64,000 nt of DNA from assembly GCF_010730355.1 (NCBI RefSeq), contig NZ_AP022576.1:5084001-5148000 (forward strand), given 5' to 3'. Shown here piece by piece: positions 46,280 to 61,972 of the stretch. The notes below the pieces were generated by a model, which was not told the DNA's origin, did no database searches, and saw nothing but the letters and a program-made list of their open reading frames with translations. Position 1 is the stretch's first letter; every line of letters starts with the position of its first letter. The stretch is from Mycobacterium florentinum (lineage in GTDB: Bacteria > Actinomycetota > Actinomycetes > Mycobacteriales > Mycobacteriaceae). Position numbers and translations under genes: made by a program.

Positions 46280-46289
46280 GAATCCATTT

Positions 46290-46718: not shown

Positions 46719-46724
46719 GTCGCC

Positions 46725-46730
46725 ACGGTA
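46725..46730 (-). promoter_or_regulatory. -10 box, leaderless promoter of the HIT gene
   Basis: TACCGT on the minus strand with exactly six bases to the ATG at 46718. Confidence 0.5.
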
Positions 46731-46837
46731 CTGGCTGCCTCAACCCGGCCGGCTCGCGCCCGAGCCGGCGAATGCACACCCTTATACCGTTTGCGCACAT
46801 GATCAACCGGCCGGGGCGCGACGCCGGCCGCGGGGGC

Positions 46838-46843
46838 TACGCT
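46838..46843 (+). promoter_or_regulatory. -10 box, leaderless promoter of amiB2
   Basis: TACGCT with exactly six bases to the ATG at 46850; no ribosome binding site is present. Supports the 462-residue form of AmiB2. Confidence 0.5.
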
Positions 46844-46849
46844 GCGGCA

Positions 46850-48238
46850 ATGGACGCTCGCGAACTCGCCTTCGCCGGTGCGGGCGCACTGGCGAAGATG
46901 CTGGCCGACGGTGAAATCAGCGCGCCGGACCTGCTCGAGGTCTACCTGGAGCGGATCGCGCGCCTGGACAGCGACCTGCGCTGCTACCGCGTGGTGCTGG
47001 CCGACAGCGCCCGCGAGGACGCGCAGGCCGCCCAGGAACTTCTCGACGCGGGCGCGCGGCTGCCGCTGCTGGGCGTGCCGATCGCGATCAAGGACGATGT
47101 CGACGTCGCCGGTGAGGTGACCGCGTGCGGCAGCGGCGGCCACGGTCCGCCGGTCGCGTCCGATGCGGAAGCCGTTCGCCGGCTGCGCGCTGCCGGCGCG
47201 GTCATCCTCGGCAAGACCAATGTGCCCGAGCTGATGATCTTCCCGTTCACCGAGTCGCTGACCTTCGGCGCGACCCGCAACCCGTGGAACCTCGGGCGCA
47301 GCCCGGGCGGCAGCAGCGGCGGCAGCGGCGCCGCGGTCGCCGCCGGGCTGGCCCCGATCGCGCTGGGATCCGACGGCGGCGGCTCGATTCGCGTCCCGTC
47401 GTCCTGGTGTGGCCTGTTCGGCCTGAAGCCGCAACGCGATCGCGTCTCGCTCGAACCGCACGACAACGCGTGGTACGGGCTGAGCGTCAACGGTCCGATC
47501 GCACGCTCGGTGGCCGACGCCGCACTGTTCCTCGATGCCACCACGACGATCCCGGGCCCCGAGGGCGGATTCGTCGGCGCCGCCGCGCGCGACCCCGGCA
47601 AGCTGCGAATTGCGTTGAGCACCAAGATCCCCACCGCCCCGCAGCGGGTCGGGCGCGAAGAGTTGGCGGCCGTGGAGCAGGCCGGCGCGCTGCTTCGCGA
47701 TCTGGGCCATGAGGTCATCACCGCCGACCCTGACTATCCACTCACGCGGCTGTATGCGAACTTCCTGCCGCGCTACCTGCGGGGCATCTGCGACGACGCC
47801 GACGCGCAGGCCCATCCGGAACGCCTCGAAGCCCGCACCCGCACCCTGGCGCGCCTGGGATCGTTCTTCTCGGACCGCAGGATGGAAGCCGTGCAGGCCG
47901 CCGAGGAGCGGATGAGCGCCAGGATCCAGTCGATCTTCGACGACGTCGACGTCGTCATCACGCCGGGCACCGCGGACGGTCCGTCCCGGATCGGTGCCTA
48001 CCGGCGCCGCGGCGCGGTGTCGACGCTGCTGCTGGTCGCCCAGCAGGTTCCGTACTTCGCACCCTGGAATGCAACCGGTCAGCCCGCCGCGGTGGTGCCG
48101 TGGGACTTCGACGGCGACGGGCTGCCGTTGTCGGTACAGCTGGTCGGCCGACCGTTCGACGAGGCGACGTTGTTGTCGCTGTCCGCACAGATCGAAGCGG
48201 CCCGGCCGTGGGCGCACCGGCGACCGCCGGTGTCATGA
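46850..48238 (+). CDS. amiB2: amidase-signature hydrolase AmiB2
   Basis: A 462-residue amidase, the same length as M. tuberculosis AmiB2. The Ser-Ser-Lys catalytic set is visible: Lys in VPIAIKDDVDVAG (about 76-88), the cis-Ser and nucleophile Ser in the Gly/Ser-rich block GRSPGGSSGGSGAAVAAG (about 149-166) and GSDGGGSIRVPS. It hydrolyses an unidentified amide. The start was set by the promoter six bases upstream and by match to the known N-terminus. Its end overlaps the convergent glycosylase gene by six bases. Confidence 0.92.
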   Translation: MDARELAFAGAGALAKMLADGEISAPDLLEVYLERIARLDSDLRCYRVVLADSAREDAQAAQELLDAGARLPLLGVPIAIKDDVDVAGEVTACGSGGHGPPVASDAEAVRRLRAAGAVILGKTNVPELMIFPFTESLTFGATRNPWNLGRSPGGSSGGSGAAVAAGLAPIALGSDGGGSIRVPSSWCGLFGLKPQRDRVSLEPHDNAWYGLSVNGPIARSVADAALFLDATTTIPGPEGGFVGAAARDPGKLRIALSTKIPTAPQRVGREELAAVEQAGALLRDLGHEVITADPDYPLTRLYANFLPRYLRGICDDADAQAHPERLEARTRTLARLGSFFSDRRMEAVQAAEERMSARIQSIFDDVDVVITPGTADGPSRIGAYRRRGAVSTLLLVAQQVPYFAPWNATGQPAAVVPWDFDGDGLPLSVQLVGRPFDEATLLSLSAQIEAARPWAHRRPPVS

Positions 48239-48727
48239 AAGCAACAACGCCCGCCAGGCCGCCAGCTTGACGCCCGGCCGGGTGGCATGGGCCGGGCTGC
48301 TGGACGGCAGCCGCTGGAACTCGAGCCGATCGTCGGGCTGCGCCAGCCTGCGATACAGCTCGGCCGCCTTGGCGCCGTTGAAGTAAACCCGGGTGATCCT
48401 CGGGTAGTCGGCGAATAACCCGGCAAAGTCGTTGAGCACCAAGCTTTTCGGATCGATCGCGGAATCGGCGCTACCGGCCCGGCGGCAGCCGCGCAGCACG
48501 TCCCACAGCGCGACCCCGTGCGCCCGCAACGCGGCCAGACGGGATTCGTAGGGCGCGTCGGCGTCGAACCCGAAGAGCTCACCGGTGATGGGCCAGAACG
48601 CATTTCGTGGATTTGCGTAGTACTCGTGTGCGATCAGCGACTGCGCACTCGGAAACGAGCCCAGGATCAGCATCCGGGCGCGGCCGTCAATGACGGGGCC
48701 GAAGCCATGCAGCAGGGGCGGGGTCAT
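48233..48727 (-). CDS. hypoxanthine-DNA glycosylase-like protein (UDG superfamily, family 6)
   Basis: A 164-residue protein of the uracil-DNA-glycosylase fold. The sequence [13 protein letters not shown] (about 18-30) followed by [13 protein letters not shown] (about 35-47) is the mark of DNA-deoxyinosine glycosylases (HDG), which remove hypoxanthine formed by adenine deamination. [18 protein letters not shown] and a C-terminal SSSPAH complete the pattern. It is squeezed between amiB2 and the adenylate cyclase, where M. tuberculosis has no gene. With udgB at 38.7 kb the window encodes two distinct deaminated-base glycosylases. Confidence 0.85.
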
Positions 48728-48755
48728 CGCTTCACATCATGGCCGGTCGGCGTTG

Positions 48756-48761
48756 TACGTT
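48756..48761 (+). promoter_or_regulatory. -10 box, leaderless promoter of the adenylate cyclase gene
   Basis: TACGTT with six bases to GTG 48768. A -35-like TTCACA (48731-48736) lies 19 bp further upstream, inside the 5' flank of the divergent glycosylase gene. Confidence 0.5.
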
Positions 48762-48767
48762 GACCAC

Positions 48768-49895
48768 GTGGACGACGAGGTCGACATCGACGATCTGCTC
48801 GACGGACTCGAGGGTGCCGCGCGCACGGAACGTGCCGAGCTGGTGGCCTGGCTGCTGGAACAGGGGATCACCGCCGACGAGATCGCCTCCACCAACCCGC
48901 CACTGCTGTTGGCCAGCCGCCGCATCATCGGTGACGACGGCACCTACGTGTCGGCGCGTGAGATCAGCGAGCACTACAACATCGACCTGATGCTGCTGCA
49001 GCGCGTGCAGCGCGCGATCGGGCTGGCCAGGGTGGACGATCCCGACGCGGCGATCCACATGCGCGCCGACGGTGAAGCGGCCGCCTACGCCCAGCGCTTC
49101 GTGGAGATGGGGCTCAACCCCGACCAGGTCGTGCTGGTGGTGCGGGTGCTGGCCGACGGTCTGTCCCACGCCGCCGAGGTCATGCGTTATGCGGCGCTGG
49201 CGGCGATCATGCGCCCCGGCTCCAGCGAGCTGGAGGTCGCCCAGGCGTCCAAGGCGCTGGTGAGTCAGATCGGCCCGCAGCTCGGCCCGATGATCGAGCA
49301 GATGCTCTTCATGCAGTTGCGCCACATGATGGAGACCGAGGCGGTCAATGCCGCCGAACGCGCCGCCGGCAAACCGCTGCCGGGCGCGCGCCAGGTCACC
49401 GTCGCCTTCGCCGATCTGGTCGGCTTCACCCGGTTGGGCGAGGTCGTATCGCCCGAGGAGCTGGGGCAGCTCGCCGGCCGGCTGGCGTCCCTGGCTCGCG
49501 ACATGACGGCCCCGCCGGTGCGGTTCATCAAAACGATCGGGGACGCGGTGATGTTCGTCTGCCCGGAGCCCGCGCCGCTGCTCGATGTGGTGCTGAAGCT
49601 CGTCGAAGCCGTCGACACCGACAACGACTTTCCCCGGCTGCGGGCGGGGGTGTCCGCCGGGATGGCGGTGAGCCGGGCCGGTGACTGGTTCGGCAGCCCG
49701 GTCAATGTCGCGAGCCGGGTTACCGGGGTGGCTCGCGCGGGCACCGTTTTGGTCGCCGATTCGGTGTGGGACGAGATCGGCGAGTCCGGGGAGTTCTCCG
49801 GGTCTTTCGCGGGCGCACGTCGCCTCAAGGGCGTCAAGAACGAAGTCAAGCTTTTCCGGGTACGTCGCGGCGGCGACGCCCGCGACAACGACTGA
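48768..49895 (+). CDS. class III adenylate cyclase with N-terminal pH-sensing domain (Rv1264-type)
   Basis: A 375-residue soluble cyclase making cAMP. Residues 1-205 are the helical autoinhibitory domain, which in the tuberculosis enzyme makes activity rise at acid pH. The catalytic domain starts at about 207: metal Asp216 in FADLVGFT, adenine-selecting Lys255 in FIKTIGD, second metal Asp259, and transition-state Asn/Arg in [11 protein letters not shown]. The start was chosen at GTG 48768 because a -10 box ends six bases upstream; ATG 48690 is a shadow. A CRP-type site at 5.76 kb and the Rv1265-type neighbour make cAMP signalling relevant to this window. Confidence 0.93.
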
Positions 49896-50121
49896 ATCCA
49901 CTACACGCTGAGGCAGGCCCGGGCGGCGCTGGGGGGCGTCTGACACGGTCCGACGCGGCCGGCTCCTTCCCCTGTGCCGGCGCTTTGACTTGGCCGCTTC
50001 CGGGCCTGCTTCGTGATCAAAAATACGCCTGTGAGCGGGCCATATCAACGGTTTTCCGGTTCCCGTAGCTAGCCGACTTTCGCGACCGTCCGGCGTTCGC
50101 CGCGGGCGAACCCGCTAGGTA

Positions 50122-50152
50122 TTACAAATGTAACGGTGTAATCATGTAATCA
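50122..50152 (+). promoter_or_regulatory. candidate operator: TGTAA repeats with 8-bp period over the start of the Rv1265-type gene
   Basis: TGTAA occurs at 50129, 50137 and 50145, exactly eight bases apart; the last two units are identical octamers (TGTAATCA) that abut and run into the ATG. An inverted TTACA at 50122-50126 pairs with the first unit as TTACA-N2-TGTAA. Such short tandem repeats are typical binding sites of ribbon-helix-helix proteins, and the product has such a motif. Confidence 0.6.
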
Positions 50153-50709
50153 TGAAATCGCACCACAGTCAGAGGCGGTACGGCCGCCCCGGGGGCTGGC
50201 AGCAAGCCCAGCAGCCCGATGCCACCGGCGCGGCGGAATGGTTCGCCGGACGCCTGCCCGAAGCCTGGTTCGACGGCGACCCGACGGTCGTCGTCGACCG
50301 TGAAGAGATCACCGTCATCGGCAAGCTGGCGGACGCAACAGAAGAGAGCGAGGCGCGTGCCGAAGGCCGGGCCTCGCGGTTCCGCGAGGAGACCCGTTCC
50401 GAGCGGATGCGCATTGCCGATGAGGCGCAGGATCGCTACGGGCGCAAGGTTTCCTGGGGCCTGGAGATCGGCGGCGAACGAATCCTGTTCACGCACATCG
50501 CAGTTCCGGTGATGACACGCTTGAAGCAGCCGGAGCGCCAGGTGCTCGACACGCTGGTGGATGCCGGTGTCGCGAGGTCGCGGGCCGACGCCCTGGCGTG
50601 GTCGGTCAAGCTCGTCGGCGAGCACACCGAGGAATGGCTGGCCAAGTTACGCGACGCGATGTCGGCGGTCGACGATCTGCGCGCCGAAGGGCCAGATCTA
50701 CCGGCTTAA
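50152..50709 (+). CDS. Rv1265-type cAMP-associated protein with ribbon-helix-helix-like C-terminus
   Basis: A 185-residue hydrophilic protein. Residues 1-60 include DPTVVVDREEITVIGKL, followed by a very charged helix (EESEARAEGRASRFREE, about 64-80). The segment RQVLDTLVDAGVARSRADAL (about 128-147) has the spacing of a ribbon-helix-helix DNA-binding motif; this is my inference. In M. tuberculosis Rv1265 was reported as cAMP- and macrophage-responsive (from memory). It follows the adenylate cyclase after 256 bp. Three TGTAA repeats cover its start, so autoregulation is plausible. It ends 42 bp from the convergent pknH. Confidence 0.8.
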   Translation: MKSHHSQRRYGRPGGWQQAQQPDATGAAEWFAGRLPEAWFDGDPTVVVDREEITVIGKLADATEESEARAEGRASRFREETRSERMRIADEAQDRYGRKVSWGLEIGGERILFTHIAVPVMTRLKQPERQVLDTLVDAGVARSRADALAWSVKLVGEHTEEWLAKLRDAMSAVDDLRAEGPDLPA

Positions 50710-50751
50710 GCCAATCTCGCAGTGCCGCTTAGGCATTGGCGGCCGCAAGAG

Positions 50752-52653
50752 CTAGATGTTGTTGACTTTGTCGACGATCTTGTCGGCGATCTGGCTCGAC
50801 TGATCGCTGATGTGGTAGCCGCAGGCGTTGACGTCGACGATCACGTTGTTCGCCACGCTCATCGCGTGCTCGCACTGCCAGCCGTCGGCGCCTTCCTGGG
50901 TCTGCAGCACCGAGATCTTCGGTGAAGTGCCCTGGATGGGAGCGAAAGTCCAGCGATAGGTCTTGTCGTTCGAGTTCGTCACCGTCACCGTCTGACCGAC
51001 GCACTTCTTCCATTTGTCCGCCGAGCTCTGCAGGAACGCCTTGGCTTTGTCGGCGGTCGGGAACGACACCACCGCCTGGTTGACCCAATGGTCGTTGTCG
51101 TCGCCCGGCTCGGAGGCCACCAGCCCGTTGATACCGGTGTAGCCGCTGCCGGCATACACCTGATCCTGCGTCGTGTAGAGCGCTCCCTTGCAGTCCGGTA
51201 TCGACACCGTCATCGTCGAGGTGCCCATCGTGGTGATGGGCTTGCCGGGCTGGATGTTCGTCGCGCCCATGATGGCGTTGATCTCCGAGGGGCTCAGCAG
51301 CAGCGAGTTGAGCTTGTCGGACGCGATCGGGTCGGGCGGCGGCTTCGGGTCGGGGATGATCAGCCAAATCGCGACCGCGCTGACCAGCACCACGACCACC
51401 ACCGCGGCCGCGGCGATGATCGGCCAGGGATTGCGCTTGGGCTTCGGTGGCTGCGCCAGGCCCCAGGGGGTGTGGCCGACGGGCTGGGCGGGCGGCAGGT
51501 TGCCGGTTGGCGGGCCGACCCGGTTGCCGCTGCCGCCTTGGTAATACTGCGGAACAGAGACGGGCTGAGCCGGGCTGGGCACGGGACCGCTCTCGGGTGC
51601 CCAGGGCCGAGGGCTCGGTGCGTGGTGCGGTGGCACCGGAGTGGAACTCGGTCGCGGGTACGGCGTCGGGGTTCGCGGCGGGGGTGTGGTGGGCCGCTGC
51701 TGCACGGGAGGCGCCGCCATGGTGCCCGCGATCGTCGGGGGCTGCTCGAGCTTGTCCTTGCCGGGCAGGGTCGCTTCCTGGCTGCGGCGCAGGATGTCGG
51801 AGGCGTGGTCTTGATCGGGATTGCTGAGCGCCTCATGCGCGGCCAGGGCCAAGTCGCCCGCGCTGGCGTAGCGCTCCTCGGGCTTTTTCGCCATGCCGCG
51901 CCCGATCACCGCGTCGAAGGCCTTGGGAATTCCCGCGCGCACCGCGCTGGGCAGTGGAATGGGATCGCTCATGTGGGCCTTGACCAGCACGCCGGCGCTG
52001 TCGGCGCGATACGGCGGGGACCCGGTCAGGCACTCGTGCAGGACGCAGGCCAACGCGTAGATATCGGCGCGGTAGGTCACCTCGTCATTGGTGAATCTCT
52101 CCGGGGCCATGTATTTCCAGGTGCCGACCGCCGTACCGAGCTGGGTGAGCTTCTCGTCGGTGGTGGCGCTGGCGATGCCGAAGTCGACGAGGTAGGCGAA
52201 ATCGTCGCGGGTGACCAGGATGTTGGGCGGTTTGACGTCGCGGTGCATCACCCCCGCGGCGTGCGCCGCGTCCAGGGCCGAGGCGATTTGGGTGATGATC
52301 GCGACCGCGCGCGGTGGCGTCAGGGGGCCATACCGTTTGAGCAAGCTGTCCAAGTCGGTGCCCTCGACGAGGCGCATCTCCATGAACATTTTTCCGTCGA
52401 TTTCGCCGTAGTCGTGAATCGGGACGACGTGCGGCTCCTGCAAACGGCCCGCGGTGCGCGCTTCGCGCTTCATCCGCTCGCGAAAGACGGGGTCCGAGCT
52501 GAACTGGTCGGACATCAGCTTGACCGCGACGGTCCACTCCTTGACGGTGTGCTCGGCCTCGTAGACCTCGCCCATCCCGCCCCGGCCCAGCAGCCGTTTC
52601 AGGTGGTAGGGCCCGAACGTCGAGCCCTCGCGTGAGGCCTGCCCCTCGCTCAT
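50752..52653 (-). CDS. pknH: Ser/Thr protein kinase PknH with PknH-type sensor domain
   Basis: A 633-residue receptor kinase. The kinase domain (about 15-280) has GRGGMGEV, Lys45, HRD with Asp139, DFG with Asp157, and activation-loop Thr170 and Thr174 in LTQLGTAVGTWKYMAPE. A Pro-rich linker (300-405) leads to one membrane helix (about 409-433). The extracellular domain (440-633) has four cysteines (488, 551, 594, 611) as in the M. tuberculosis PknH sensor. Known PknH phosphorylates EmbR, encoded 5 kb upstream. Its first 280 residues are nearly those of the second kinase at 55.6 kb. The start ATG follows GGAGG. Confidence 0.95.
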   Translation of the reverse strand: MSEGQASREGSTFGPYHLKRLLGRGGMGEVYEAEHTVKEWTVAVKLMSDQFSSDPVFRERMKREARTAGRLQEPHVVPIHDYGEIDGKMFMEMRLVEGTDLDSLLKRYGPLTPPRAVAIITQIASALDAAHAAGVMHRDVKPPNILVTRDDFAYLVDFGIASATTDEKLTQLGTAVGTWKYMAPERFTNDEVTYRADIYALACVLHECLTGSPPYRADSAGVLVKAHMSDPIPLPSAVRAGIPKAFDAVIGRGMAKKPEERYASAGDLALAAHEALSNPDQDHASDILRRSQEATLPGKDKLEQPPTIAGTMAAPPVQQRPTTPPPRTPTPYPRPSSTPVPPHHAPSPRPWAPESGPVPSPAQPVSVPQYYQGGSGNRVGPPTGNLPPAQPVGHTPWGLAQPPKPKRNPWPIIAAAAVVVVVLVSAVAIWLIIPDPKPPPDPIASDKLNSLLLSPSEINAIMGATNIQPGKPITTMGTSTMTVSIPDCKGALYTTQDQVYAGSGYTGINGLVASEPGDDNDHWVNQAVVSFPTADKAKAFLQSSADKWKKCVGQTVTVTNSNDKTYRWTFAPIQGTSPKISVLQTQEGADGWQCEHAMSVANNVIVDVNACGYHISDQSSQIADKIVDKVNNI

Positions 52654-52699
52654 CGCTGATCCTCCAAACCAACCGCAGACCCGCCGACCATATCAACAA
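52651..52699 (-). promoter_or_regulatory. duplicated 5' leader and -10 box of pknH
   Basis: These 49 bases match 46 of 49 at 57434-57482 before the second kinase. They include the GGAGG ribosome binding site and, on the minus strand, TATGGT (52687-52692), a TANNNT -10 box that predicts a leader of roughly 27 nt. Similarity ends shortly upstream. Confidence 0.55.
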
Positions 52700-52918
52700 T
52701 TTCCCGGCGGACCTGTCGGCTGCAACCCCCGGTAAGCACCCATGACGGTATGCGCCGGCCGGCTTCACCGCTCCGTAACGGCAAACGCCGACGGGCTGCC
52801 CACGCGTCGATCCCGGCCCCCAAATACGGGCCGCGTTCCAAGGATTCATCAAGGATCTCGGCAGTACGCGGGCAGACCCTTACTCCATACGAACGCGGGT
52901 TACAGCGAGGGGATATCA

Positions 52919-53074
52919 ATGCTCACCACGATGTCGTCCGCGCAGTGGCGGGCCGGTGCCGAGCGGACATGGTCCTACGGCGTGTACTACGTCGGGTATC
53001 GGTTGCTGTCGGTTCACCTGACGTGCGGCTCGTGGGCTCTCAGCGCGCTAACGCTGGTGGCCAAACACGCGTAG
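52919..53074 (+). CDS. possible small protein, 51 residues
   Basis: A short frame with ATG 52919 preceded by GAGGGG at a workable distance. The product (MLTTMSSAQW...TLVAKHA) has two Trp, three adjacent Tyr around VYYVGY, and a moderately hydrophobic C-terminal half; I recognise no family. It lies in the 427-bp gap between pknH and the FHA transporter, otherwise without genes. It could equally be chance. The rest of the gap holds the pknH leader and no other signal I can name. Confidence 0.3.
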   Translation: MLTTMSSAQWRAGAERTWSYGVYYVGYRLLSVHLTCGSWALSALTLVAKHA

Positions 53075-53080
53075 GCGGTG

Positions 53081-55447
53081 TTACTTGGCCGCTTTGCGTT
53101 GCGGGTCAAGCTGTCTGAGTCGCAGCGCGAGCAGAACGATCAGCACGATCGCCTGTACCGCGCAGGCACCCGCGGCCATCCACCAATCGCTGGCGTCGTA
53201 CTCCCACAGCGGGTCCTCGTCGCCGCCCGCGGTCCGGCGCAGATCGTCGAGATCGACGGTCGAGGCGGCCATCGCGTAGGCCCAGCGGGACGGCGACAGC
53301 CACGCCAACTGCTCCAGCGGGATGCGGCCCTTGACCCCAAACATGCCGCCGCACAGCACGAGTTCGGCCATCACCACCAGCACGAGCAGCGGCATGCCCC
53401 GGTCGGCGTTGCCGATCATCGCCGAAATCAGCAGACCGATCATCATCGAGACCACGGTGACGGCGACCACCGCAATCGCCACTTCGGCTCTGGGCCACGG
53501 CAGGACGACGGCCTGATCCGGCGGAGGCAGGCCCACCACCCCAAGGAAACCGAGAATGAGCCCTTGCACCGTGGTCAGCGCGCTGAGCACCACCAGCTTC
53601 GAGGCCAGATAGGCGCCGCGCGACAACCCGATGCCGTGCTCGCGTTGATAAATGGCTCGTTCCTTGACGATCTCGCGGATCGACGCGGCGCAGCCCATCA
53701 GCGCCCCACCGATGATCAGCAGCACCAGCAGTTGCGAGGGCTGAGTGGACTTCGTTTCGATCGCCTTGGTCAGCGACAACCCGGCCTCGCCCGGGACGGC
53801 GTGCGCGAACAGGCTCAGCAGCAGCGGTAGCACCAGCAGCGTCACCGCGTACTGGCGATCGGCGGCGATGACCGCCAGATACCTTCGGCACAGCGTGGTG
53901 AACTGAGCGAACGCGCTCTGCTGGGCGACCGGTTTCGCGGCGCGCGTGGCAGGTGCCGGGGCCTTCAGTGTGGCGTGCGGCCCGGTGAGGGCCCCGTGAA
54001 TGGGCGATGCGACGTAACGCCCCGTCCAGTCGGTCGTGGTGTCGTGTTCGAGGAGGTTGAACAGGTCGGCGAAGTCGTTGCAGCCGAAGTAGTTCAGGGC
54101 TTGGTGCGGCGGACCGAAGTACGCCAGCCGACCGCCCGGTGCCAGGATGAGCAGCCGGTCGCACAGATTCAGCTGCGCGGTGTTGTGGGTGACCACCACG
54201 ACGGACCGGCCGTCGTCGGCCAGGGCGCGCAGGGTCTGCATCACGGATTTCTCGTAGCCCGGATCGAGGCCCGACGTCGGCTCGTCCAGGAACAGCAGGG
54301 ATGGTTTGGTCAGCAGTTCCAGCGCAACGCTGGTTCGTTTGCGCTGACCGCCCGACAAACTGTCGATCCGTTGATTGGCATGCGCCGCCAGCCCGAGTTC
54401 GCCCAGCACCTCGTCAATGCGCTGCTTCCGTTCCCGGGTGGAGACGTCCTGCGGAAACCGAAGCTGCGCAGCGTAATTCAGTGCCCGTCGGACTGTCAGC
54501 TGAGTGTGCAGGATGTCGTCCTGCGGCACGAAGCCAATCCGGTGTCGCAGCTCGGCGTAGTTCTGGTAGAGGTCGCGATTGTCGTAGCGGACCTCCCCGC
54601 TGCCGGCCGGGCGGAATCCGGTCAACGCGCTCAACAGCGTGGATTTCCCTGCGCCACTTGGCCCTACCACCGCCATGAAGCAGCGTTGCGGCAGGGCGAA
54701 ACTGACGCTGGCCAACAACACCTTGCCCTTGCCGGAGACCACCCGCAGGTTCGACGCCTCGTAGGACACGTCGCCGGTGTCGACGTATTCGACGAGTTGG
54801 TCACCGGACAGGTGCAGCAGCTGATGGCCGATGCCGACGATGTCGTTCGGTCCGATGATCGCGCGCGCGATCCGGTTGCCGTTGACGTAGGTTCCGTTGG
54901 CGCTGTTGCTATCTACCAGCTCCCACTGATTCCCGGCACGGCGCAACACCGCGTGATGGCGAGAGACCAGCAGGTCGTCGAGCACGACGGCGTTGTCGGT
55001 TCCGCGGCCGATCCCGATGGTTACCTGATCCATCGTGTAGACCGCGGTCGGTGGCCGGGCAACCGTGGTCTCGCCGACCGGTCGCGTCGGTGCGACGGTT
55101 TGCGTCCTCGCCGGGCTGGGCGGTGGGGCAATCGGGTAGAGCTCGAGCGGCTGCCCGGAGGACGCCGACCCCAGCACGACGGTGATCGGCTGGCTGATCG
55201 GCAGGCTCTCGACTCGCCGCCCGTTCACGAACATCCCGTTGTTGCTGCGGTTGACCAGGACCCAGCCCGCCGGCGTCGGCTGCAGCACCGCGTGCTGGCG
55301 CGACACTCTGGGATTCTCCAGCTGGATGTCGGCTTCGTGCGCACGGCCAATGCTCCAGGACCGGCCACCGCTGGCCCGCCAGGTACGCCCACCGGCCCGC
55401 AGTTCCAAACCGGGAATGGTGGTGACCACGTCGGTCCTGTCGTCCAC
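53081..55447 (-). CDS. ABC transporter with two FHA domains, ATPase and permease fused (Rv1747-like)
   Basis: A 788-residue ABCG-type half transporter. FHA domain 1 (about 30-100: GRAHEAD, RVSRQHAVL, NNGMFVNG) and FHA domain 2 (about 143-212: GRGTDN, VSRHHAVL, ANGTYVNG) flank a Thr-rich linker (114-135). The ATPase has Walker A GPSGAGKST (262-270) and signature LSGGQRKR. Six C-terminal helices (about 540-785) form an ABC-2 permease. FHA domains bind phosphothreonine, so the kinases on both sides are likely partners; M. tuberculosis Rv1747 is controlled this way by PknF. The GTG at 55447 follows GGAGG. Absent at this locus in M. tuberculosis. Confidence 0.9.
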   Translation of the reverse strand: MDDRTDVVTTIPGLELRAGGRTWRASGGRSWSIGRAHEADIQLENPRVSRQHAVLQPTPAGWVLVNRSNNGMFVNGRRVESLPISQPITVVLGSASSGQPLELYPIAPPPSPARTQTVAPTRPVGETTVARPPTAVYTMDQVTIGIGRGTDNAVVLDDLLVSRHHAVLRRAGNQWELVDSNSANGTYVNGNRIARAIIGPNDIVGIGHQLLHLSGDQLVEYVDTGDVSYEASNLRVVSGKGKVLLASVSFALPQRCFMAVVGPSGAGKSTLLSALTGFRPAGSGEVRYDNRDLYQNYAELRHRIGFVPQDDILHTQLTVRRALNYAAQLRFPQDVSTRERKQRIDEVLGELGLAAHANQRIDSLSGGQRKRTSVALELLTKPSLLFLDEPTSGLDPGYEKSVMQTLRALADDGRSVVVVTHNTAQLNLCDRLLILAPGGRLAYFGPPHQALNYFGCNDFADLFNLLEHDTTTDWTGRYVASPIHGALTGPHATLKAPAPATRAAKPVAQQSAFAQFTTLCRRYLAVIAADRQYAVTLLVLPLLLSLFAHAVPGEAGLSLTKAIETKSTQPSQLLVLLIIGGALMGCAASIREIVKERAIYQREHGIGLSRGAYLASKLVVLSALTTVQGLILGFLGVVGLPPPDQAVVLPWPRAEVAIAVVAVTVVSMMIGLLISAMIGNADRGMPLLVLVVMAELVLCGGMFGVKGRIPLEQLAWLSPSRWAYAMAASTVDLDDLRRTAGGDEDPLWEYDASDWWMAAGACAVQAIVLIVLLALRLRQLDPQRKAAK

Positions 55448-55639
55448 TCATCGCCTCCGCTGGGTTAGCTGGCCGCCTCGAGTATTGTCACGGCGTCCAC
55501 CACTTGTATAGCTGATCTTGGTGTGATCCTGGCGTTTTTGCCACCCGGGCGCGGTTTGCTGGTTTGGTCCGCATCGCGTGGCGCGCGCCGCCTCGGTTAT
55601 CCGATGCCGTTGGGCCGGTTGATCTTTGGCTACCGAGGC

Positions 55640-57436
55640 TCAGCCACCGTATTTGGTCCACCAGGTGTGCAGTTCCTCGATGGTCGGGGGATCGCCGAAG
55701 ACGTCGCATAACAGCAGCTTGACCTGATTGCTCCACACCATGTTCGGGTGGTTGTTGTAGGTGCCGCAGGCGACCATGCCGACGTCGACCTTCGGGGCGT
55801 CCGGGTGCTGCCACGGTTCCGGGTTGTTAACCCCTCCGGGGCAGGTCGCCAGCGTCAGCAGCTTGATGTCGGCGTCGGTTGCGTCCTTCAGGACGCTCGG
55901 ATTCGGGAAGAGACCGTAGCGCGCCTTCGAGGGGCCGCCCGGGTTGGTGTTCTGGTCGCAGTCGACGACGGCCAGCGCGTCCGACCAGACCGTGTTCGGT
56001 TTCGCGGTGGCCGGTGTGCACGTGCCGCTCGGGTAGCCCGGGGGCACCAGGGTGAGCAGCTGGCCTTCGAGGTCGCCGCTCGCGGTGGTCGTGGTGGTGG
56101 TCGGTTTCGAACTCGTGGTCCTCGGCGGGGTTGTGGTGCTGGTCGCGGTCGGATGCGGTTTCGGGTTGTCGTCATCCTGTGTGGCGACGTAGACGCCGAC
56201 GGCCGCGAGCACCAGGACCACAACCAGGGCGGCGGCCCCGATGACGAACGGCCAGGGGTTGCGCTTGGGCTTGGGCGGGGGTTGCTGTCCCAGCGTCCAG
56301 GCAGCGGGGCCGGCGGGCGGGGGTGCGCCGGGCGGCGTTGCGGCCCAGTTGCCGCTGGTGCCTTGGTAATACTGCGCGCCCGAGACCGGCTGGCTCGGGG
56401 TCGGGACGGGGCCACTCTCGGGCGCCCAGGGCCGAGCGGTCGGCGCGGGCGGTGGCACCGGCGTAGAACTTGGCGGCGGGTACGGCGGCGGTGGAGTGCC
56501 GCTCTGCGGTGGCGCGGCCGGGGGAGGCAGGTGCGGGGTTTCGGCCGCCAGGGTGGCTTCCTGGCTGCGGCGCAGGATGTTGTCGGCGTGGTCTTGATCG
56601 GGATTGCTCAGCGCCTCGTGCGCGGCCAGCGCCAGGTCGCCGGCGCTGGCGTAGCGGTCCTCGGGCTTTTTCGCCATGCCCCGCGCGATCACCGCATCGA
56701 AGGCCTTCGGGATGCCCGAGCGCACCGCGCTGGCCAGCGGTATGTCGTCGGTGGTGTGCGCCCTGACCAGCTCGCCGGCGGTGCCCGCGCGATAGGGCGG
56801 GGTGCCCGTCAGGCATTCGTACAGCACGCAGGCCAACGCGTAGATATCGGCGCGGTAGGTGACCTCGCCGTTGGAAAACCGTTCGGGCGCCATGTATTTC
56901 CAGGTGCCCACCGCGGTGCCGAGTTGGGTGAGCTTCTCGTCGGTGGTGGCGCTGGCGATGCCGAAGTCAACGAGGTAGGCGAAATCGTCGCGGGTGATCA
57001 GAATGTTGGGCGGCTTGATGTCGCGGTGCATGACGCCGGCGGCGTGGGCCGCGTCGAGGGCCGAGGCGATCTGGGTGATGATCGCGACCGCGCGCGGCGC
57101 GGTCAGTGGGCCAAACCGTTTGAGCATGTCGTCCAAGTCGATGCCCTCGATCAGGTGCATCTCCATGAACATCTGTCCATCGATCTCGCCGTAGTCGTGG
57201 ATCGGCACCACATGCGGTTCCTGCAAACGGCCGGCGGTGCGCGCCTCGCGCCGCATCCGCTCACGGAATACCGGGTCCCTGCTGAACTCCGCGGTCATCA
57301 CCTTGACCGCGACCGTCCACTCTTTGACGGTGTGCTCGGCCTCGTACACCTCGCCCATGCCACCCCGGCCCAGCAGCCGCTTTAGATGGTAGGGCCCGAA
57401 CATCGACCCCACTCGCGAGTTTTGCTCCTCGCTCAT
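55640..57436 (-). CDS. PknH-like Ser/Thr protein kinase with a different extracellular domain
   Basis: A 598-residue receptor kinase. Residues 1-297 are almost the same as PknH, with Lys45, Asp139, Asp157, Thr170 and Thr174 conserved. The Pro-rich linker and membrane helix (about 396-418) are also related. The outside part is not: a Thr/Pro stalk (425-452) leads to a ~145-residue domain with five cysteines (473, 493, 532, 557, 577) and motifs LLTLVPPGYPSGTC, VDCDQNTNPGGPSKARYGLF, VACGTYNN and LHTWWTKYGG, unlike the PknH sensor. It therefore senses something else while keeping the same kinase. The ATG at 57436 follows GGAGG. embR lies 251 bp upstream on the same strand. Confidence 0.92.
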   Translation of the reverse strand: MSEEQNSRVGSMFGPYHLKRLLGRGGMGEVYEAEHTVKEWTVAVKVMTAEFSRDPVFRERMRREARTAGRLQEPHVVPIHDYGEIDGQMFMEMHLIEGIDLDDMLKRFGPLTAPRAVAIITQIASALDAAHAAGVMHRDIKPPNILITRDDFAYLVDFGIASATTDEKLTQLGTAVGTWKYMAPERFSNGEVTYRADIYALACVLYECLTGTPPYRAGTAGELVRAHTTDDIPLASAVRSGIPKAFDAVIARGMAKKPEDRYASAGDLALAAHEALSNPDQDHADNILRRSQEATLAAETPHLPPPAAPPQSGTPPPPYPPPSSTPVPPPAPTARPWAPESGPVPTPSQPVSGAQYYQGTSGNWAATPPGAPPPAGPAAWTLGQQPPPKPKRNPWPFVIGAAALVVVLVLAAVGVYVATQDDDNPKPHPTATSTTTPPRTTSSKPTTTTTTASGDLEGQLLTLVPPGYPSGTCTPATAKPNTVWSDALAVVDCDQNTNPGGPSKARYGLFPNPSVLKDATDADIKLLTLATCPGGVNNPEPWQHPDAPKVDVGMVACGTYNNHPNMVWSNQVKLLLCDVFGDPPTIEELHTWWTKYGG

Positions 57437-57482
57437 CGCTGATCCTCCAAACCGGCCGCAGACCCGCCGACGATATCAACAA
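57434..57482 (-). promoter_or_regulatory. duplicated 5' leader and -10 box of the second PknH-like kinase
   Basis: Matches the pknH leader in 46 of 49 bases. It contains GGAGG and, on the minus strand, TATCGT (57470-57475) in the place of TATGGT, so the -10 pattern TANNNT is kept. Confidence 0.55.
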
Positions 57483-57687
57483 CTACGGTCAGATCCTCGC
57501 TCGTAACCTCCGCGACTAGCAACCATCACGGTAAGCCGTCGTGCACGCCCAGGCGGGACAATCGCGAGATCCCGGCGCAGGCGCGTCGCGCATCGACACC
57601 GACAACGTCCGGCGAAAAGCCTTGCGGTGTTTGGCCATGCCGGATATTGCTACGAAATACCTTGCACAGCAAGGATATTCGGCTACT

Positions 57688-58842
57688 TCAGTTTGCTGCC
57701 TCGCTGTTGTAGCCGCGCGGGATCTCGAACGTGAATTCGTGGTCGCAGATGCGGACGTGGTCGCCGTCCTTCAGGGTGGCCGCCGACCGGATGCGTTGGT
57801 GTTGCACGTGTACACCATTGGACGACCGCAGGTCGTTGATGACATAGCTGGTGCCGGTGTCGACGATGACGGCGTGATGGCGGCTGACATTGGCGCTGGC
57901 CAGGACGATGTCGTTGTCGCTGAGACGTCCGATCCGGGTCTCGGTCAGGCGCAATGGGTAGCTGCGGCCCGACGCTTCGTGCAGGTAGGCGGCGGGCTTG
58001 CCGGCGGGGACCTTGGTGCGCTGGTCCAGCAGGGTGATGGTGCCGACGGCCGTGGTCCTGGCTGATTTCTTGGCGTCCAGCGGCTCCTGGCGCAGGATTT
58101 TTTCGTTGAGGTCACGCAGCGTCGGGCCGGGGTCGATTCCGAGCTCGTCGGCGAGTGTCGTCTTCACCCGGCGGTACGCGGCCAGCGCGTCGGATTGCCG
58201 GTCGGTCAGGTAGTAGGCCGTGATCAGCTGGGCCCACAGCGGCTCGCGGTAGGGGTGCTCCGCGATGAGCACTTCGAGGTCGCCGATCACGGCGGCGCCA
58301 CGTCCGCAAGCGATTTCGGCCTCTGCCTTCGCGGTGTGGACCAGAATTTTTTCCTCCACGAGTGAGGTGGCGAAGGTGTCGACGAACTGAAAGTCGCGCA
58401 GGTCATCGAGCACCGGTCCGCGCCATTGCGCCAATGCCGCCGTCAGGTGCTGGCTCGCCTGCTCGAACCGGCTGATCGCGGCCGCGTGCACGCCCGCGGT
58501 CTTCTCGGTGATGAACCGTCCAAGATCGCAACTGTTTTCGTCGACGGTGAGCCGGTAGCCCGGCGGCGCGGCGGCCAGCACCACGCGCGGGTCGATGCCG
58601 GCGCCGGTGAGGAGCTTGCGCAGATTGGACACGTAGGAGTGGATGCTGGCCCGTGCACCCGACGGGGGCTCGTCTTCCCACAGGGCGGTGATCAGCCTTT
58701 CGACGCCGACCGGGCTGTTGCGGTTCATCAGCAGCATGGCCAGCACCGCCCGCTGTTTGGGCGTGCCCAGCGGCACCACCGTGCCGTCCACAGTCATCTC
58801 CAACGGCCCGAGCAGGCCGAATTCGAGACTCTTGTCTACCAT
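57688..58842 (-). CDS. embR: FHA-containing transcriptional regulator EmbR
   Basis: A 384-residue SARP-type activator. Residues 1-98 form an OmpR-like winged helix (TPKQRAVLAMLLMNRN, then IHSYVSNLRKLL). Residues 105-255 are the helical activation domain (PYREPLWAQLITAYYLTDRQSDALAAYRRVK). The C-terminal FHA domain (about 295-375) has IGRLSDNDIV, VSRHHAVIV and SSNGVHV. In M. tuberculosis, PknH phosphorylates EmbR, which then activates the embCAB arabinosyltransferase genes, targets of ethambutol. The ATG at 58842 matches the usual length; ATG 58911 would add 23 residues. Neither has a good ribosome binding site. Confidence 0.93.
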   Translation of the reverse strand: MVDKSLEFGLLGPLEMTVDGTVVPLGTPKQRAVLAMLLMNRNSPVGVERLITALWEDEPPSGARASIHSYVSNLRKLLTGAGIDPRVVLAAAPPGYRLTVDENSCDLGRFITEKTAGVHAAAISRFEQASQHLTAALAQWRGPVLDDLRDFQFVDTFATSLVEEKILVHTAKAEAEIACGRGAAVIGDLEVLIAEHPYREPLWAQLITAYYLTDRQSDALAAYRRVKTTLADELGIDPGPTLRDLNEKILRQEPLDAKKSARTTAVGTITLLDQRTKVPAGKPAAYLHEASGRSYPLRLTETRIGRLSDNDIVLASANVSRHHAVIVDTGTSYVINDLRSSNGVHVQHQRIRSAATLKDGDHVRICDHEFTFEIPRGYNSEAAN

Positions 58843-59067
58843 CGTCGCTAACCAGCCCTTCCGGGTTCTCTGCGCGGCGTCACCTGCCCATGCGGTGTTA
58901 TTCCTTGTCATTGTGATACGAACCCCCCGAATTCGGTAATATCCCGCGATTGGTGTGCCGCGGCGCCGGCGGCGGCATGCGCTTGGCCCGGGCTGAAATG
59001 TGTTCCCTGCCAGCGTGATCATCGATTGCTCGCACGAATCCGATTGGGATGCCCCGAAAACGCATAA

Positions 59068-59112
59068 GGCGGGCAGCCGACCCGGTGCATGTGCTCCGCG
59101 TGGCTGCCCGCC
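59068..59112 (-). terminator. hairpin downstream of the C39-like gene
   Basis: GGCGGGCAGCC (59068-59078) and GGCTGCCCGCC (59102-59112) form a perfect 11-bp stem with a 23-base loop, 21 bp after the stop. There is no T run, as is usual for mycobacterial terminators. Confidence 0.55.
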
Positions 59113-59132
59113 GATTGGGCAGTTGGGTGGGT

Positions 59133-59831
59133 TTAGGTGGTGAAGACCATCAGCTCCTTGCTGGCCTCCCACGCCCGCATGAACAGCGCTATCGGGATCT
59201 GCTCGTCGCGGCCTTCCTTGGTGCCGCTGTCGTTGAGGTGCACCACGTCATTGGCGGTGTCGATGCCGGTGACCACCACGGCGTGGTCGCCCCGCGGGTT
59301 TCCGTCGTCGTCCTTGTTTTCGACGGGCTGGCCCCAGATCAGTTCGCCGTTGACGCTGACGATGACCTTGTGGCCCTCCGCCAGCTGCTCCTCGAGCCCT
59401 TCGATGCCACCGAGGATGCCGTCTTTGGCGGCGTGCTCCTTGTTGGTGATCGTGGCGTTGATCTTGTAGAGCTTCAGCAAGGTCGGGACGTCGGCAAAGC
59501 TGGTGCCCATACCCGAGTTTGGGTTTTTGGTGTTGGCCGGCGTGGTGTAGATCGAGCCCGGGTGGACGACGCTCGGAGTCGCTTGCGCCCGCTTGATGAT
59601 GGCCGGTTCCGAGGGTTGCTTGCCGGTGATCTGGCCGATCACGTCGGCACTCGCCATCAGGACGCAGTCGTCGTATTTCTGGTACTGCCAGTACTCGGCG
59701 GCGGCCGCGGGATCGCCGTACATGGTGCCCGCGGCTGCCCCGGCCGGTGCGGCCAAACCCAACGCGACGGCACTTGCGACGACTGCGAAGGCGGCGGTCT
59801 TGGCGATCGCGACGATTTTGGTGGTCTTCAT
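59133..59831 (-). CDS. secreted C39-like papain-fold protein (Rv1268c-type)
   Basis: A 232-residue exported protein. The signal peptide (1-34) ends GLAAPAGAAAG. The mature part fits the peptidase C39-like fold: Cys56 in YQKYDDCVLMASADVIG, His183 in GDHAVVVTGID and Asn200/Asp201 in VHLNDSG could form the active site. Whether it cleaves anything is unknown; no bacteriocin or exporter gene with a C39 role lies nearby. The ATG at 59831 follows GAAGGGA and gives the length I remember for the tuberculosis protein. A hairpin ends the gene. Confidence 0.78.
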   Translation of the reverse strand: MKTTKIVAIAKTAAFAVVASAVALGLAAPAGAAAGTMYGDPAAAAEYWQYQKYDDCVLMASADVIGQITGKQPSEPAIIKRAQATPSVVHPGSIYTTPANTKNPNSGMGTSFADVPTLLKLYKINATITNKEHAAKDGILGGIEGLEEQLAEGHKVIVSVNGELIWGQPVENKDDDGNPRGDHAVVVTGIDTANDVVHLNDSGTKEGRDEQIPIALFMRAWEASKELMVFTT

Positions 59832-59980
59832 CGTGGTCCCTTCTCTCATTCCGCGGTGTTGTGCGGCGGTTGAGAAAAGGTTCCGATCGTGGCCTATCTG
59901 TTATCTCCACGAATTCTTGGAGTGATGAAGACCGTGCTCAGGCAGCGTTGGCTCGTCGCACGGCGGTTTGGGGCCAGGGA

Positions 59981-60349
59981 CTAGTTGCACGCCCAGGTGT
60001 CGATGGAGCCGCCGCCGAGTTTGGTCAAGGCGTCCTTCATCGCGGCGGCCAGGGTCGAGCCGACACCGCCCTGGAATGCCTTGCCATTGGTCGCGACGGC
60101 GCCGCAATCGGTGAAGCTGGTGAGCACCTTGCAGTCGGTGTATGCGCAGTTTTTGACCGCGGTCGCCTCCGCGGCCGGGCGGGTAGGGTAGTCCCACGAG
60201 CGGCCCCAGGAACCGTTGCTGGAGTAGGCAATCGCGCCGTATTGATCGGCGGCGCCGGCCGCGGGAGCCAGCGCGACGCTGATCGCGGCGGCGGTGGCCA
60301 TACCGGCGACGGCCACGGTGAACCGCCGGCGACGAGCAATCGTCCTCAT
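59981..60349 (-). CDS. secreted DUF4189 protein (Rv1269c-type)
   Basis: A 122-residue exported protein. The signal peptide has an Arg-rich start (RTIARRRRF) and cleavage near PAAGAAD (about 31-34). The mature domain shows the DUF4189 pattern: YGAIAYSSNGSWGRSWDYP, then A-x-NCAYTDCKVLTSFTDCGAVAT, and a final WACN, with four cysteines likely in disulfides. Function unknown. The ATG at 60349 follows AAAGGAA. Same strand and close spacing suggest it may be transcribed with lprA and the C39-like gene. Confidence 0.85.
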   Translation of the reverse strand: MRTIARRRRFTVAVAGMATAAAISVALAPAAGAADQYGAIAYSSNGSWGRSWDYPTRPAAEATAVKNCAYTDCKVLTSFTDCGAVATNGKAFQGGVGSTLAAAMKDALTKLGGGSIDTWACN

Positions 60350-60417
60350 TGGTGATTCCTTTCCGAATGCCGGCGGTCCGGCGGTTTCCGCGTTTTCCAG
60401 GGGTTGCGATTCCGCGC

Positions 60418-61158
60418 TCATGGCGAGACGGGCTTCGTGGCGCTGACCGTCTTGCCCCAGTCCGACATCGTCAGCGTCACCGAGGTGTCGTTCGTCGGAT
60501 GGACCCGAAGCTGAACGAGGTGCGAGGAGCCGTCCGAGGCGATCCAGACCGTGGTGGGCACCGTCGTCACGCTCTGCGCGGTCAACTTGGAGCCGGCCAG
60601 GGTGGCGACGTCGTCGGCCGAGGAGCTACCGGTGATCTTGGTGGTTGCGACGCCGTTGACCTGCTCGGTCCCCGACACCGCACCGCCCTGCAGTTTCGAC
60701 AGCAGATTGGCCAGCCCCTTGGTGGGGTCCAGCAGCACCGACACGTTGTAGATCGAGGCGCCGTTGCCGAAGTCGGTGTAGGTGCCGGGCTGTCCGAGGT
60801 CGGAGTAGAGATGGCCGTCGATGTAGACGAACTTCGCGTCTTCCGGCGATTTGCCGACCAGCAGCGTCGCGGTACCCGTGGCAACCGTTTGCGGGGTGTT
60901 GGAGATGTCGCCGTCCAGCTTGGTCACACGAAGATTGGGCACGTCGCCCTGCACGGCCACGCTGACATGCATCCCGGTGACCTTGGTCATCGCGTCGGCG
61001 GCCTGCTTGAGCAGGGTGGCCGCCTCGCTGCTGGAGGTGCTGGAAGTGGTGCCGGGCGGTTTGCCGGTGCTCGAGTCATTCGAACAGCCACCGATGGCGA
61101 GTACGAGGGCGAGCGCTGCGGCAGCGGCGGCGGTGACGGTGCGAGGCGAGAGCTTCAT
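60418..61158 (-). CDS. lprA: lipoprotein LprA (LppX/LprAFG family)
   Basis: A 246-residue lipoprotein with lipobox IGGC (about 22-25). The mature part has the LppX/LprAFG fold with a hydrophobic cavity that binds acylated lipids (VTGMHVSVAVQGDVPNL, ISNTPQTVATGTATLLVG, DGHLYSDLGQPGTYTDFG, LTMSDWGKTVSATKPV). M. tuberculosis LprA is a known TLR2 agonist. I prefer ATG 61158 because AAGGAG stands six bases before it; ATG 61164 would leave no space. Confidence 0.92.
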   Translation of the reverse strand: MKLSPRTVTAAAAAALALVLAIGGCSNDSSTGKPPGTTSSTSSSEAATLLKQAADAMTKVTGMHVSVAVQGDVPNLRVTKLDGDISNTPQTVATGTATLLVGKSPEDAKFVYIDGHLYSDLGQPGTYTDFGNGASIYNVSVLLDPTKGLANLLSKLQGGAVSGTEQVNGVATTKITGSSSADDVATLAGSKLTAQSVTTVPTTVWIASDGSSHLVQLRVHPTNDTSVTLTMSDWGKTVSATKPVSP

Positions 61159-61504
61159 CGACATCTCCTTCAGTGGTGGCCACAGCTGCCTCCTGCATAG
61201 CAATCGCCGCGCAGCAAATCAACAGCCGACCCCCGAGCTTAGTGAGCCCGATGTCGGATGCGGAAGGTCTAAACAGGATCGCGCGTCTGCCCGGTGTCGC
61301 CGCGCAGTCACATTCGGGCCGATATGACAGTGAATTAGCTTGATTAGCAACGTTTTCCAATCTCACCGCGGTGTTGTGGAAGCTGCGGTGTCGTCGAACG
61401 CGGTGCCTGACCGGCGTGACCGAGGGTCCGCAATCCGAACCCAGAAATGGCGAATGGGGGGATCCCGGTTACCGGGATCCCCCCATCCAGTGGGGTGGGT
61501 GCGA
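61159..61504. other. 346-bp intergenic region between lprA and the DUF732 gene
   Basis: No gene is supported here. It holds the lprA ribosome binding site at its left end and a strong hairpin at 61454-61486 near its right end. The middle (about 61200-61440) has short low-quality frames only and a slightly lower GC stretch around 61330-61370; I see no clear promoter motif. Confidence 0.5.
61454..61486 (-). terminator. strong hairpin terminator after the DUF732 gene
   Basis: A perfect 15-bp stem (61454-61468 with 61472-61486) closed by a three-base TTA loop, starting 18 bp after the DUF732 stop. The stem is G/C-rich and symmetrical around GGATCC-containing arms; no T tail follows on the minus strand. 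Confidence 0.8.
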
Positions 61505-61840: not shown

Positions 61841-61972
61841 TGCTGTGGTCCCTTTCGGTTGGGCGGTTGGGGTGCTGATGGGACTAGCGTCAGCCGCACT
61901 TCTAAAGGGATTCTGTATAACTTCTTGGCGTCGTTTCAGTAACGCCTCAGGCGCCCGGCCGGACCGGGAAGT

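What the first reader, a model, noticed from the sequence alone, without database searches (positions are those of the whole stretch)
50752..58842. Kinase-transporter-kinase-regulator block: two PknH-like kinases flank an FHA ABC transporter beside EmbR
M. tuberculosis has pknH next to embR here. In this window a second PknH-like kinase and an Rv1747-like ABC transporter with two FHA domains are added, all on one strand. Both FHA proteins read phosphothreonine. Two receptor kinases with nearly identical catalytic halves could therefore feed different signals into the same two FHA outputs: transcription of arabinan genes and export across the membrane. The layout looks like a self-contained signalling and export module.
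Basis: partly seen in the sequence, partly recalled or inferred. Interest (0 to 1): 0.85.

Follow-up and report, generated by a model that had tools for sequence, protein, structure and literature searches.

The report
Two-kinase exporter locus beside embR (RD900)
This is the already described RD900 locus of mycobacteria (two sensor kinases around an exporter, next to the regulator EmbR), here intact in a relative of Mycobacterium triplex; comparing genomes suggests the exporter works with a lipid-carrying surface protein, LprA, and with the kinase's sensor domain.

Summary
The four genes are real and at the stated coordinates. The block is not new: it is the RD900 locus (embR, pknH2, tbd2/maf1, pknH1) described in the M. 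tuberculosis complex, M. marinum and M. kansasii (PMC3289620, PMC7785237).

What I add:
(1) The embR-AbmR slot varies from 75 to 12,395 nt over 31 loci.
(2) Kinase halves are homogenised within some genomes; sensors stay distinct.
(3) An RD900-type collapse to a composite kinase also occurred in a close M. triplex relative.
(4) LprA accompanies Tbd2 in 25 of 25 genomes. A second FHA-ABC clade, fused at its C-terminus to the PknH sensor domain (9 of 9), also lies near LprA-DUF4189: same contig 9 of 9, within 5 kb 8 of 9. None of 27 control FHA-ABC loci has LprA. Whether the pairing arose once or twice is unresolved.

Best reading: kinase-gated lipid export, with EmbR as a second phosphothreonine-reading output. 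No biochemistry was tested; the substrate is unknown.

The parts
50752..52653 (-). pknH1-type receptor kinase (Kc): kinase aa 16-261, one TM about aa 415-433, PknH_C sensor aa 444-629
   Evidence: Pfam; PDB 2h34 and 4esq; hydropathy
53081..55447 (-). tbd2/maf1-type FHA-FHA-ABC-ABC2 exporter, 788 aa, six TM peaks in the ABC2 part, C-terminus predicted inside
   Evidence: Pfam; hydropathy; FHA residues conserved
55640..57436 (-). pknH2-type receptor kinase (Ka); sensor aa 450-598 with four invariant cysteines, no Pfam hit and no PDB match (best E 0.47)
57688..58842 (-). EmbR (winged helix, BTAD, FHA), 384 aa
   Evidence: Pfam; PDB 2fez E 1.8e-203
59133..59849 (-). peptidase-C39-like protein (position of Rv1268c, recalled)
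   Evidence: PF13529 E 9.6e-6
59981..60421 (-). DUF4189 protein, overlaps the end of lprA by 4 nt; travels with LprA
   Evidence: PF13827
60418..61203 (-). LprA-type LppX_LprAFG lipoprotein, proposed lipid-carrier partner of the exporter (ORF start uncertain)
   Evidence: PF07161 E 2.8e-62; co-occurrence
50152..50709 (+). AbmR (Rv1265-type), border of the variable slot
   Evidence: NCBIfam NF058631

Best explanation
The block is an intact RD900 locus in a member of the M. simiae complex (nearest named loci M. ahvazicum and M. triplex). Likely mechanism: two envelope receptor kinases with different outside domains and almost the same cytoplasmic half autophosphorylate on threonine. Their phosphothreonines recruit two kinds of FHA protein, the regulator EmbR and the exporter Tbd2. 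Tbd2 then moves an envelope lipid or glycolipid across the membrane and hands it to the LprA lipoprotein, perhaps with DUF4189. The PknH_C sensor probably reports on that pathway, because another exporter clade carries the same domain fused to its own C-terminus. Shown here: gene content, domains, conservation, homogenised kinase halves in some genomes, repeated loss of the transporter, and linkage of LprA-DUF4189 with two FHA exporter clades. Published for relatives: PknH-EmbR and PknF-Rv1747 pairing through FHA domains. Inferred: that these kinases act on Tbd2, that Tbd2 exports lipid, that LprA receives it, and what the sensors bind.
For: Domains. In 27 aligned proteins (26 Tbd2-type plus L009) the FHA1 residues G34/R35/S49/H52/N70 are kept in 26 (the other, L058, has a gap there) and FHA2 G147/R148/S162/H165/N184 in 27; in the otherwise variable inter-FHA linker T127 and T134 are kept in 26 each, R131/P133/V136 in 27: a candidate phosphoacceptor island. 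The commonest activation loop is identical in 47 of 73 kinases. At least 25 of 198 genomes have Tbd2 at 70% or more, and all 25 have LprA at 60% or more; 28 of 198 have such an LprA, one of them broken, besides a broken piece in G089. Tbd2 and LprA share a contig in 21 of the 25. A second FHA-ABC clade: 9 of 9 proteins end in PknH_C, seven TM peaks past the ATPase part in 7 of the 8 scanned; LprA-DUF4189 lies on the same contig in 9 of 9 and within 5 kb in 8 of 9. Tbd2 and the fused proteins are distinct clades (100 and 99). Controls: LprA or DUF4189 in 0 of 27 other FHA-ABC loci, PknH_C fusion in 1 of 27.
Against: Independent-pair test of Tbd2 against LprA on the EmbR tree: about 3 pairs agree, 0 disagree, of 4; sign-test p 0.25, not significant. 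The pairing with two exporter clades may go back to one event: holding Tbd2, L009 and the fused clade together is not rejected (AU p 0.23). Exceptions: L010 has Tbd2 with no LprA at the locus, G045 has LprA and no Tbd2 match at 70%, and modern M. tuberculosis keeps LprA (recalled) while lacking Tbd2 (PMC7785237). LprA expressed in M. tuberculosis did not co-purify LAM, LM or PIM, unlike LprG (PMC4214796, passages). One PknH_C-fused exporter (G157, L149) has no LprA neighbour. The nine fused loci were found through LprA, so that set is not an unbiased sample. Tbd2 is broken or lost in several genomes. Nothing biochemical was tested.
Confidence: 0.45

Rival explanations
1. Recombination-prone duplication without coordinated function: the kinases and transporter stay together by descent, and the alike kinase halves reflect gene conversion and deletion between direct repeats, not shared signalling.
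For: Within-genome fourfold-site identity of 0.88-0.93 with identical runs of 172-272 nt in L048, L057, L059 and L060, and 0.91 with a 97-nt run in L055. AU test rejects Ka and Kc kinase halves as separate clades (p 3.8e-5). Composite kinase after transporter loss in G076. RD900 deleted in 5-15% of lineage 1 M. tuberculosis strains by the paper's own figure (PMC8245516, passages).
Against: FHA phosphothreonine pockets and a linker motif stay conserved across 27 proteins. LprA-DUF4189 lies with two distinct FHA exporter clades. The window pair shows no recent conversion (0.70), yet both genes are intact.
Confidence: 0.25
2. Tbd2 is a PIM or lipooligosaccharide exporter like Rv1747, controlled by the adjacent kinases; LprA is a bystander that lies upstream of embR.
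For: Rv1747 is proposed as a PIM exporter and is phosphorylated by PknF (PMC5549992, PMC3908365, passages). Same domain order.
Against: Tbd2 is a clade apart from the other FHA-ABC exporters tested. LprA-DUF4189 copies lie beside Tbd2 inside the slot in G105, G006 and G074 and beside it in G057 and G060.
Confidence: 0.16
3. The FHA domains of Tbd2 act mainly as a sponge or inhibitor of PknH, as reported for EmbR2, so that the transporter tunes EmbR output rather than being a substrate.
For: EmbR2 inhibits PknH without being phosphorylated (PMC4238996, passages). The two window kinases share one activation loop.
Against: The whole of Tbd2, ATPase and TM parts included, is kept at about 70-95% identity, which a pure sponge would not need.
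Confidence: 0.08

Closest known systems
RD900 locus (pknH2 - tbd2/maf1 - pknH1 beside embR), M. africanum, M. canettii, M. bovis, M. kansasii, M. marinum (PMC3289620, PMC7785237)
   Same: Gene order beside embR, co-directional kinases with alike first two thirds and different sensors, FHA-ABC exporter with six TM, loss by recombination between the kinases
   Different: Other species group; I did not align it with MTBC sequences. The LprA-DUF4189 link is not in the parts of those two papers that I saw
PknF-Rv1747 pair of M. tuberculosis
   Same: Kinase next to a two-FHA ABC exporter
   Different: Tbd2 is a clade apart from the other FHA-ABC exporters here (about 42% identity; Rv1747 itself not fetched); the kinases are PknH-type; EmbR is adjacent
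PknH-EmbR pair of M. tuberculosis
   Same: PknH_C sensor kinase next to EmbR with an FHA domain
   Different: Second kinase with an unrelated sensor, and an exporter between the kinases
LprG-Rv1410c and other LppX_LprAFG carrier systems
   Same: Lipoprotein of the same Pfam family (family of LprG recalled) linked with an exporter
   Different: Exporter is ABC with FHA domains; cargo unknown; LprA did not co-purify LAM, LM or PIM (PMC4214796)

Membership tests
RD900 locus | ABC exporter gene flanked by two co-directional PknH-type kinases next to embR | tested here: met
RD900 locus | Kinases alike in the first two thirds and different after that | tested here: met
   74% over 413 residues, no significant alignment after that; sensors unrelated by profile
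RD900 locus | Sequence identity to the MTBC copies | not tested
   No MTBC copy was fetched; M. kansasii and M. basiliense kinases share 55% over the Ka sensor
PknH | Kinase plus PknH_C sensor like 4ESQ | tested here: met
   50752-52653: PF14032 E 1.5e-61, 4esq E 7.7e-90
PknH | PknH_C sensor in the second kinase | tested here: not met
   55640-57436 has no PF14032 hit; hhalign probability 0.3%
EmbR | Winged helix, BTAD and FHA with homology to 2FEZ | tested here: met
Rv1747 orthologue | Falls inside the Rv1747 clade of FHA-ABC exporters | tested here: inconclusive
   Tbd2 (with L009) is a clade apart (100*) from nine other FHA-ABC proteins and nine fused ones in a 33-row tree, but Rv1747 itself was not in the tree
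FHA phosphothreonine readers | Conserved GR, SxxH and NG blocks | tested here: met
Kinase-substrate pair | Phosphorylation of Tbd2 or EmbR by these kinases | not testable with these tools
   needs biochemistry
LppX_LprAFG lipoproteins | PF07161 domain | tested here: met
   60418-61203 E 2.8e-62; L128 neighbour E 1.8e-55

The most novel reading that the evidence does not exclude
Mycobacteria keep one export circuit in two layouts: a two-FHA ABC exporter, an LprA-type lipid-carrier lipoprotein with DUF4189, and a PknH_C envelope sensor. The sensor is placed on a neighbouring kinase in RD900 loci and fused straight onto the exporter in other members of the genus. The long-sought PknH ligand would then be the cargo, or an intermediate, of this export route. 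Whether the two layouts come from one origin or were assembled twice is open.
Probability: 0.32. Interest if true: 0.76.

Novelty: new member of a known kind. Interest (0 to 1): 0.48.

Why it matters
The functions of the RD900 genes have not been studied, in the words of PMC8245516 (2021, passage), and a 2012 review calls the PknH sensor ligand unknown (PMC3601408, passage). The fused exporter-sensor proteins and the LprA link name a partner and a class of ligand that can be tested directly. The composite kinase in a close M. triplex relative shows that the RD900 collapse known from M. tuberculosis also happens elsewhere, as the locus layout would predict.

Tried and rejected
Rejected: that the block is a gain in this window (published RD900 work points to loss, and remnants in L075 fit that). 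Rejected: that the Ka sensor is a recognisable PknH_C (hhalign probability 0.3%) or has a solved relative by sequence (best E 0.47). Withdrawn on re-check: my first test seemed to show that LprA was paired with FHA exporters twice independently (AU p 6.4e-41), but it left L009, the nearest relative of Tbd2, outside the group; with L009 inside, a joint clade of Tbd2 and the fused exporters is not rejected (p 0.23), and the one outgroup I could use sits on a branch of length 10 and settles nothing. I lowered two odds for this. Not proof: co-occurrence of Tbd2 and LprA on the EmbR tree (p 0.25); there L085, an EmbR-like gene of G060, was coded 0/0 although G060 holds Tbd2 and LprA, L068 was coded without LprA because its frame is broken, five fragmented genomes were coded from genome-wide hits, and L141 was left uncoded.

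Led nowhere: structure prediction of the Ka sensor (not completed); genus and order census of the fused exporter (no usable answer or busy); Rfam at gathering cut-offs found only a known sRNA in 46000-64000. The third kinase (Kb) of my loci may be the pknH3 of PMC3289620; I could not map it.
Full report
WHAT IS THERE. The four genes are present at the coordinates given, all on the minus strand. Pfam: 50752-52653 has a kinase domain and PknH_C; 53081-55447 has two FHA domains, ABC_tran and ABC2_membrane; 55640-57436 has a kinase domain and a C-terminus without a family; 57688-58842 has the EmbR domains. PDB: PknE kinase and PknH sensor for the first, EmbR for the fourth. Upstream of embR follow C39, DUF4189, LprA and DUF732 genes and an ABC exporter gene; on the other side AbmR and an adenylate cyclase. 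The genome is one contig of 6,219,859 bases. The closest named loci in the one scan I had are M. ahvazicum (94%) and M. triplex (93%); that scan may leave out the genome's own record.

IT IS RD900. PMC3289620 (section 15 read whole) describes M. africanum maf1, an FHA-ABC exporter, flanked by co-directional pknH1 and pknH2 whose first two thirds are alike. It reports the same arrangement in M. kansasii, a third kinase in M. marinum, simple deletions in M. avium, and the composite pknH of M. tuberculosis made by recombination. PMC7785237 (abstract and passages) analyses 60 strains, finds independent losses and already proposes that Tbd2 could be phosphorylated by PknH. PMC8245516 (passages) gives the deletion in 5-15% of lineage 1 strains and says the functions have not been studied. 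So M. tuberculosis lost the block; this window did not add it.

SURVEY. Of 198 genus genomes, at least 25 (own included) have Tbd2 at 70% identity or more; the next matches listed are near 42% (capped list sorted by E-value). EmbR at 73% or more is in 45 of 198. I fetched 20 kb around Tbd2 in 20 of the 24 other genomes, and embR regions of more. Of 31 loci with both embR and AbmR in view, 20 hold Tbd2 (damaged in L051 and L062) and 11 do not, one of these with remnants (L075); the slot runs from 75 to 12,395 nt. LprA is at or in the locus of 19 of the 20 (not L010) and of 1 of the 11 (L068, where its frame is broken). Single-kinase loci exist with either sensor: Ka sensor in L069, PknH_C in L071, L078, L080, L082 and L084.

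KINASE HALVES. In the window the two kinases share 88% of 296 residues and 70% of fourfold sites, longest identical run 44 nt. In L048, L057, L059 and L060 the Ka-Kc pair of one genome reaches 0.88-0.93 at fourfold sites with identical runs of 172-272 nt; L055 reaches 0.91 with a run of 97 nt. In the 73-row kinase tree the Ka and Kc of L010, L055 and L057 pair within their genome, support 98, 98 and 86. I then dropped the Kb kinases, the two L054 kinases and the own-genome paralogues (55 rows kept: 26 Ka, 29 Kc, four of the Kc by position because no sensor was in their frame). Holding Ka as one clade is rejected, AU p 3.8e-5, on a quick tree. The sensors are unrelated by profile. So in several genomes the output half is kept alike while inputs differ; gene conversion alone could explain this.

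COLLAPSE OUTSIDE THE MTBC. In G076, which pairs with M. triplex on the EmbR tree (support 89), Tbd2 is gone. In 13 pieces of 150 nt compared with five species, the first six match the M. triplex Ka best (92-98%, though in the fourth piece Ka and Kc are level at 92.6 and 92.5%); of the next seven, six match its Kc best (87-97%) and the last matches several Kc copies at 95%. The open frame of that kinase is interrupted in this assembly.

LPRA LINK. LprA at 60% or more is in 28 of 198 genomes, including all 25 with Tbd2. The other three are G076 (broken frame), G045 (no Tbd2 match at 70%) and G047 (embR at a contig edge); G089 has a broken piece besides. Tbd2 and LprA share a contig in 21 of the 25; in G188, G015, G091 and G007 they lie on different contigs. 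A second LprA-DUF4189 pair lies inside the slot next to Tbd2 in G105, G006 and G074 and next to it in G057. In G060 Tbd2 sits with LprA-DUF4189 and two kinases of another family; there is no embR orthologue at 73%, but an EmbR-like gene of 64% lies about 15.5 kb away.

FUSED EXPORTER. Nine genomes have a second-tier LprA match (E 3e-82 to 4e-59, 44-54% identity); I did not look at the next tier, which begins at E 3e-47. In 9 of 9 an FHA-ABC protein lies on the same contig: directly adjacent in 6, within 5 kb in 8, about 17 kb away in G117; DUF4189 is next to LprA in 9 of 9. In 9 of 9 the exporter ends in PknH_C, E from 8e-25 to 1.5e-37; L129, near a contig end, shows one FHA domain, the other eight two. 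Past the ATPase part, seven TM peaks in 7 of the 8 scanned against six in Tbd2 put the sensor outside (crude hydropathy, L135 gives six). Controls: 27 other FHA-ABC loci, chosen by me (18, mostly long frames or high ranks; L009; three loci; five short loci), show no LprA and no DUF4189; one (G157, L149) has a PknH_C fusion. The nine were found through LprA, so the reverse rate is unknown; the planned census failed for technical reasons.

ONE ORIGIN OR TWO. In a 33-row tree (14 Tbd2 rows chosen by me) Tbd2 and the fused exporters are separate clades, 100 and 99. A joint clade is rejected only if L009, the nearest relative of Tbd2, is kept out (p 6.4e-41); with L009 inside it is not (p 0.23), and no useful outgroup was at hand. 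So the shared LprA-DUF4189 neighbours may be one old link or two.

MECHANISM. Published: PknH-EmbR and PknF-Rv1747 pairing (PMC4238996 and PMC3908365, passages); Rv1747 linked to PIM levels (PMC5549992, passages); PknH sensor with a cleft and unknown ligand (PMC3601408, passage). A transposon screen in M. marinum lists PknH_1 and the Rv1410c homologue among mutants unable to induce iniBAC (PMC5760070, one table passage). From the sequence: FHA pockets and a threonine-bearing linker island are conserved, and the activation loop is the same in 47 of 73 kinases. I infer kinase-gated export with LprA as carrier and EmbR as second output. Against it: LprA did not bind LAM, LM or PIM in one study (PMC4214796, passages), and the tree test for LprA is not significant.

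PRINT CHECK. I saw no mention of the exporter-PknH_C fusion or of an LprA-Tbd2 link. The searches were in an open-access library only. In one search one paper held PknH, EmbR and LprA together; I did not open it. In one search only 8 of 366 papers were listed, and of those I saw passages of PMC5549992 alone, on other terms.

Noticed in passing
L128, L129, L130, L132-L137: FHA-ABC-ABC2 exporters with a C-terminal PknH_C sensor domain, near LprA-DUF4189; L128 also has an FHA-PknH_C protein (16581-18302).
   Followed up: yes
L054 (G060) 45-2693 and 6268-7767: Two kinases of another family near Tbd2 with the same first 300 residues (98% nt) and different lengths after that: the identical-kinase, different-tail layout again.
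   Followed up: partly
L126 (own genome C1:823000-842000): Paralogous kinases; the one at 12954-14603 has a Ka-type sensor (49%) and a kinase domain 76% like that of PknH1.
   Followed up: no
window 49905-49999, minus strand: sRNA ncrMT1302 (RF02341) between the adenylate cyclase and AbmR.
   Followed up: no
L083 (G046): embR with only 75 nt before AbmR: no kinase in the slot.
   Followed up: no
L146 (G089, 3.2 Mb genome): Fragments of kinase, LprA, adenylate cyclase and Rv1263-type genes: decayed locus.
   Followed up: no
L091, L093 (own genome): Two further EmbR-like genes, each with kinases nearby including PknH_C kinases.
   Followed up: no
L051 (G031): EmbR, Tbd2 and the cyclase are each interrupted in one stretch; assembly errors are possible.
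   Followed up: no
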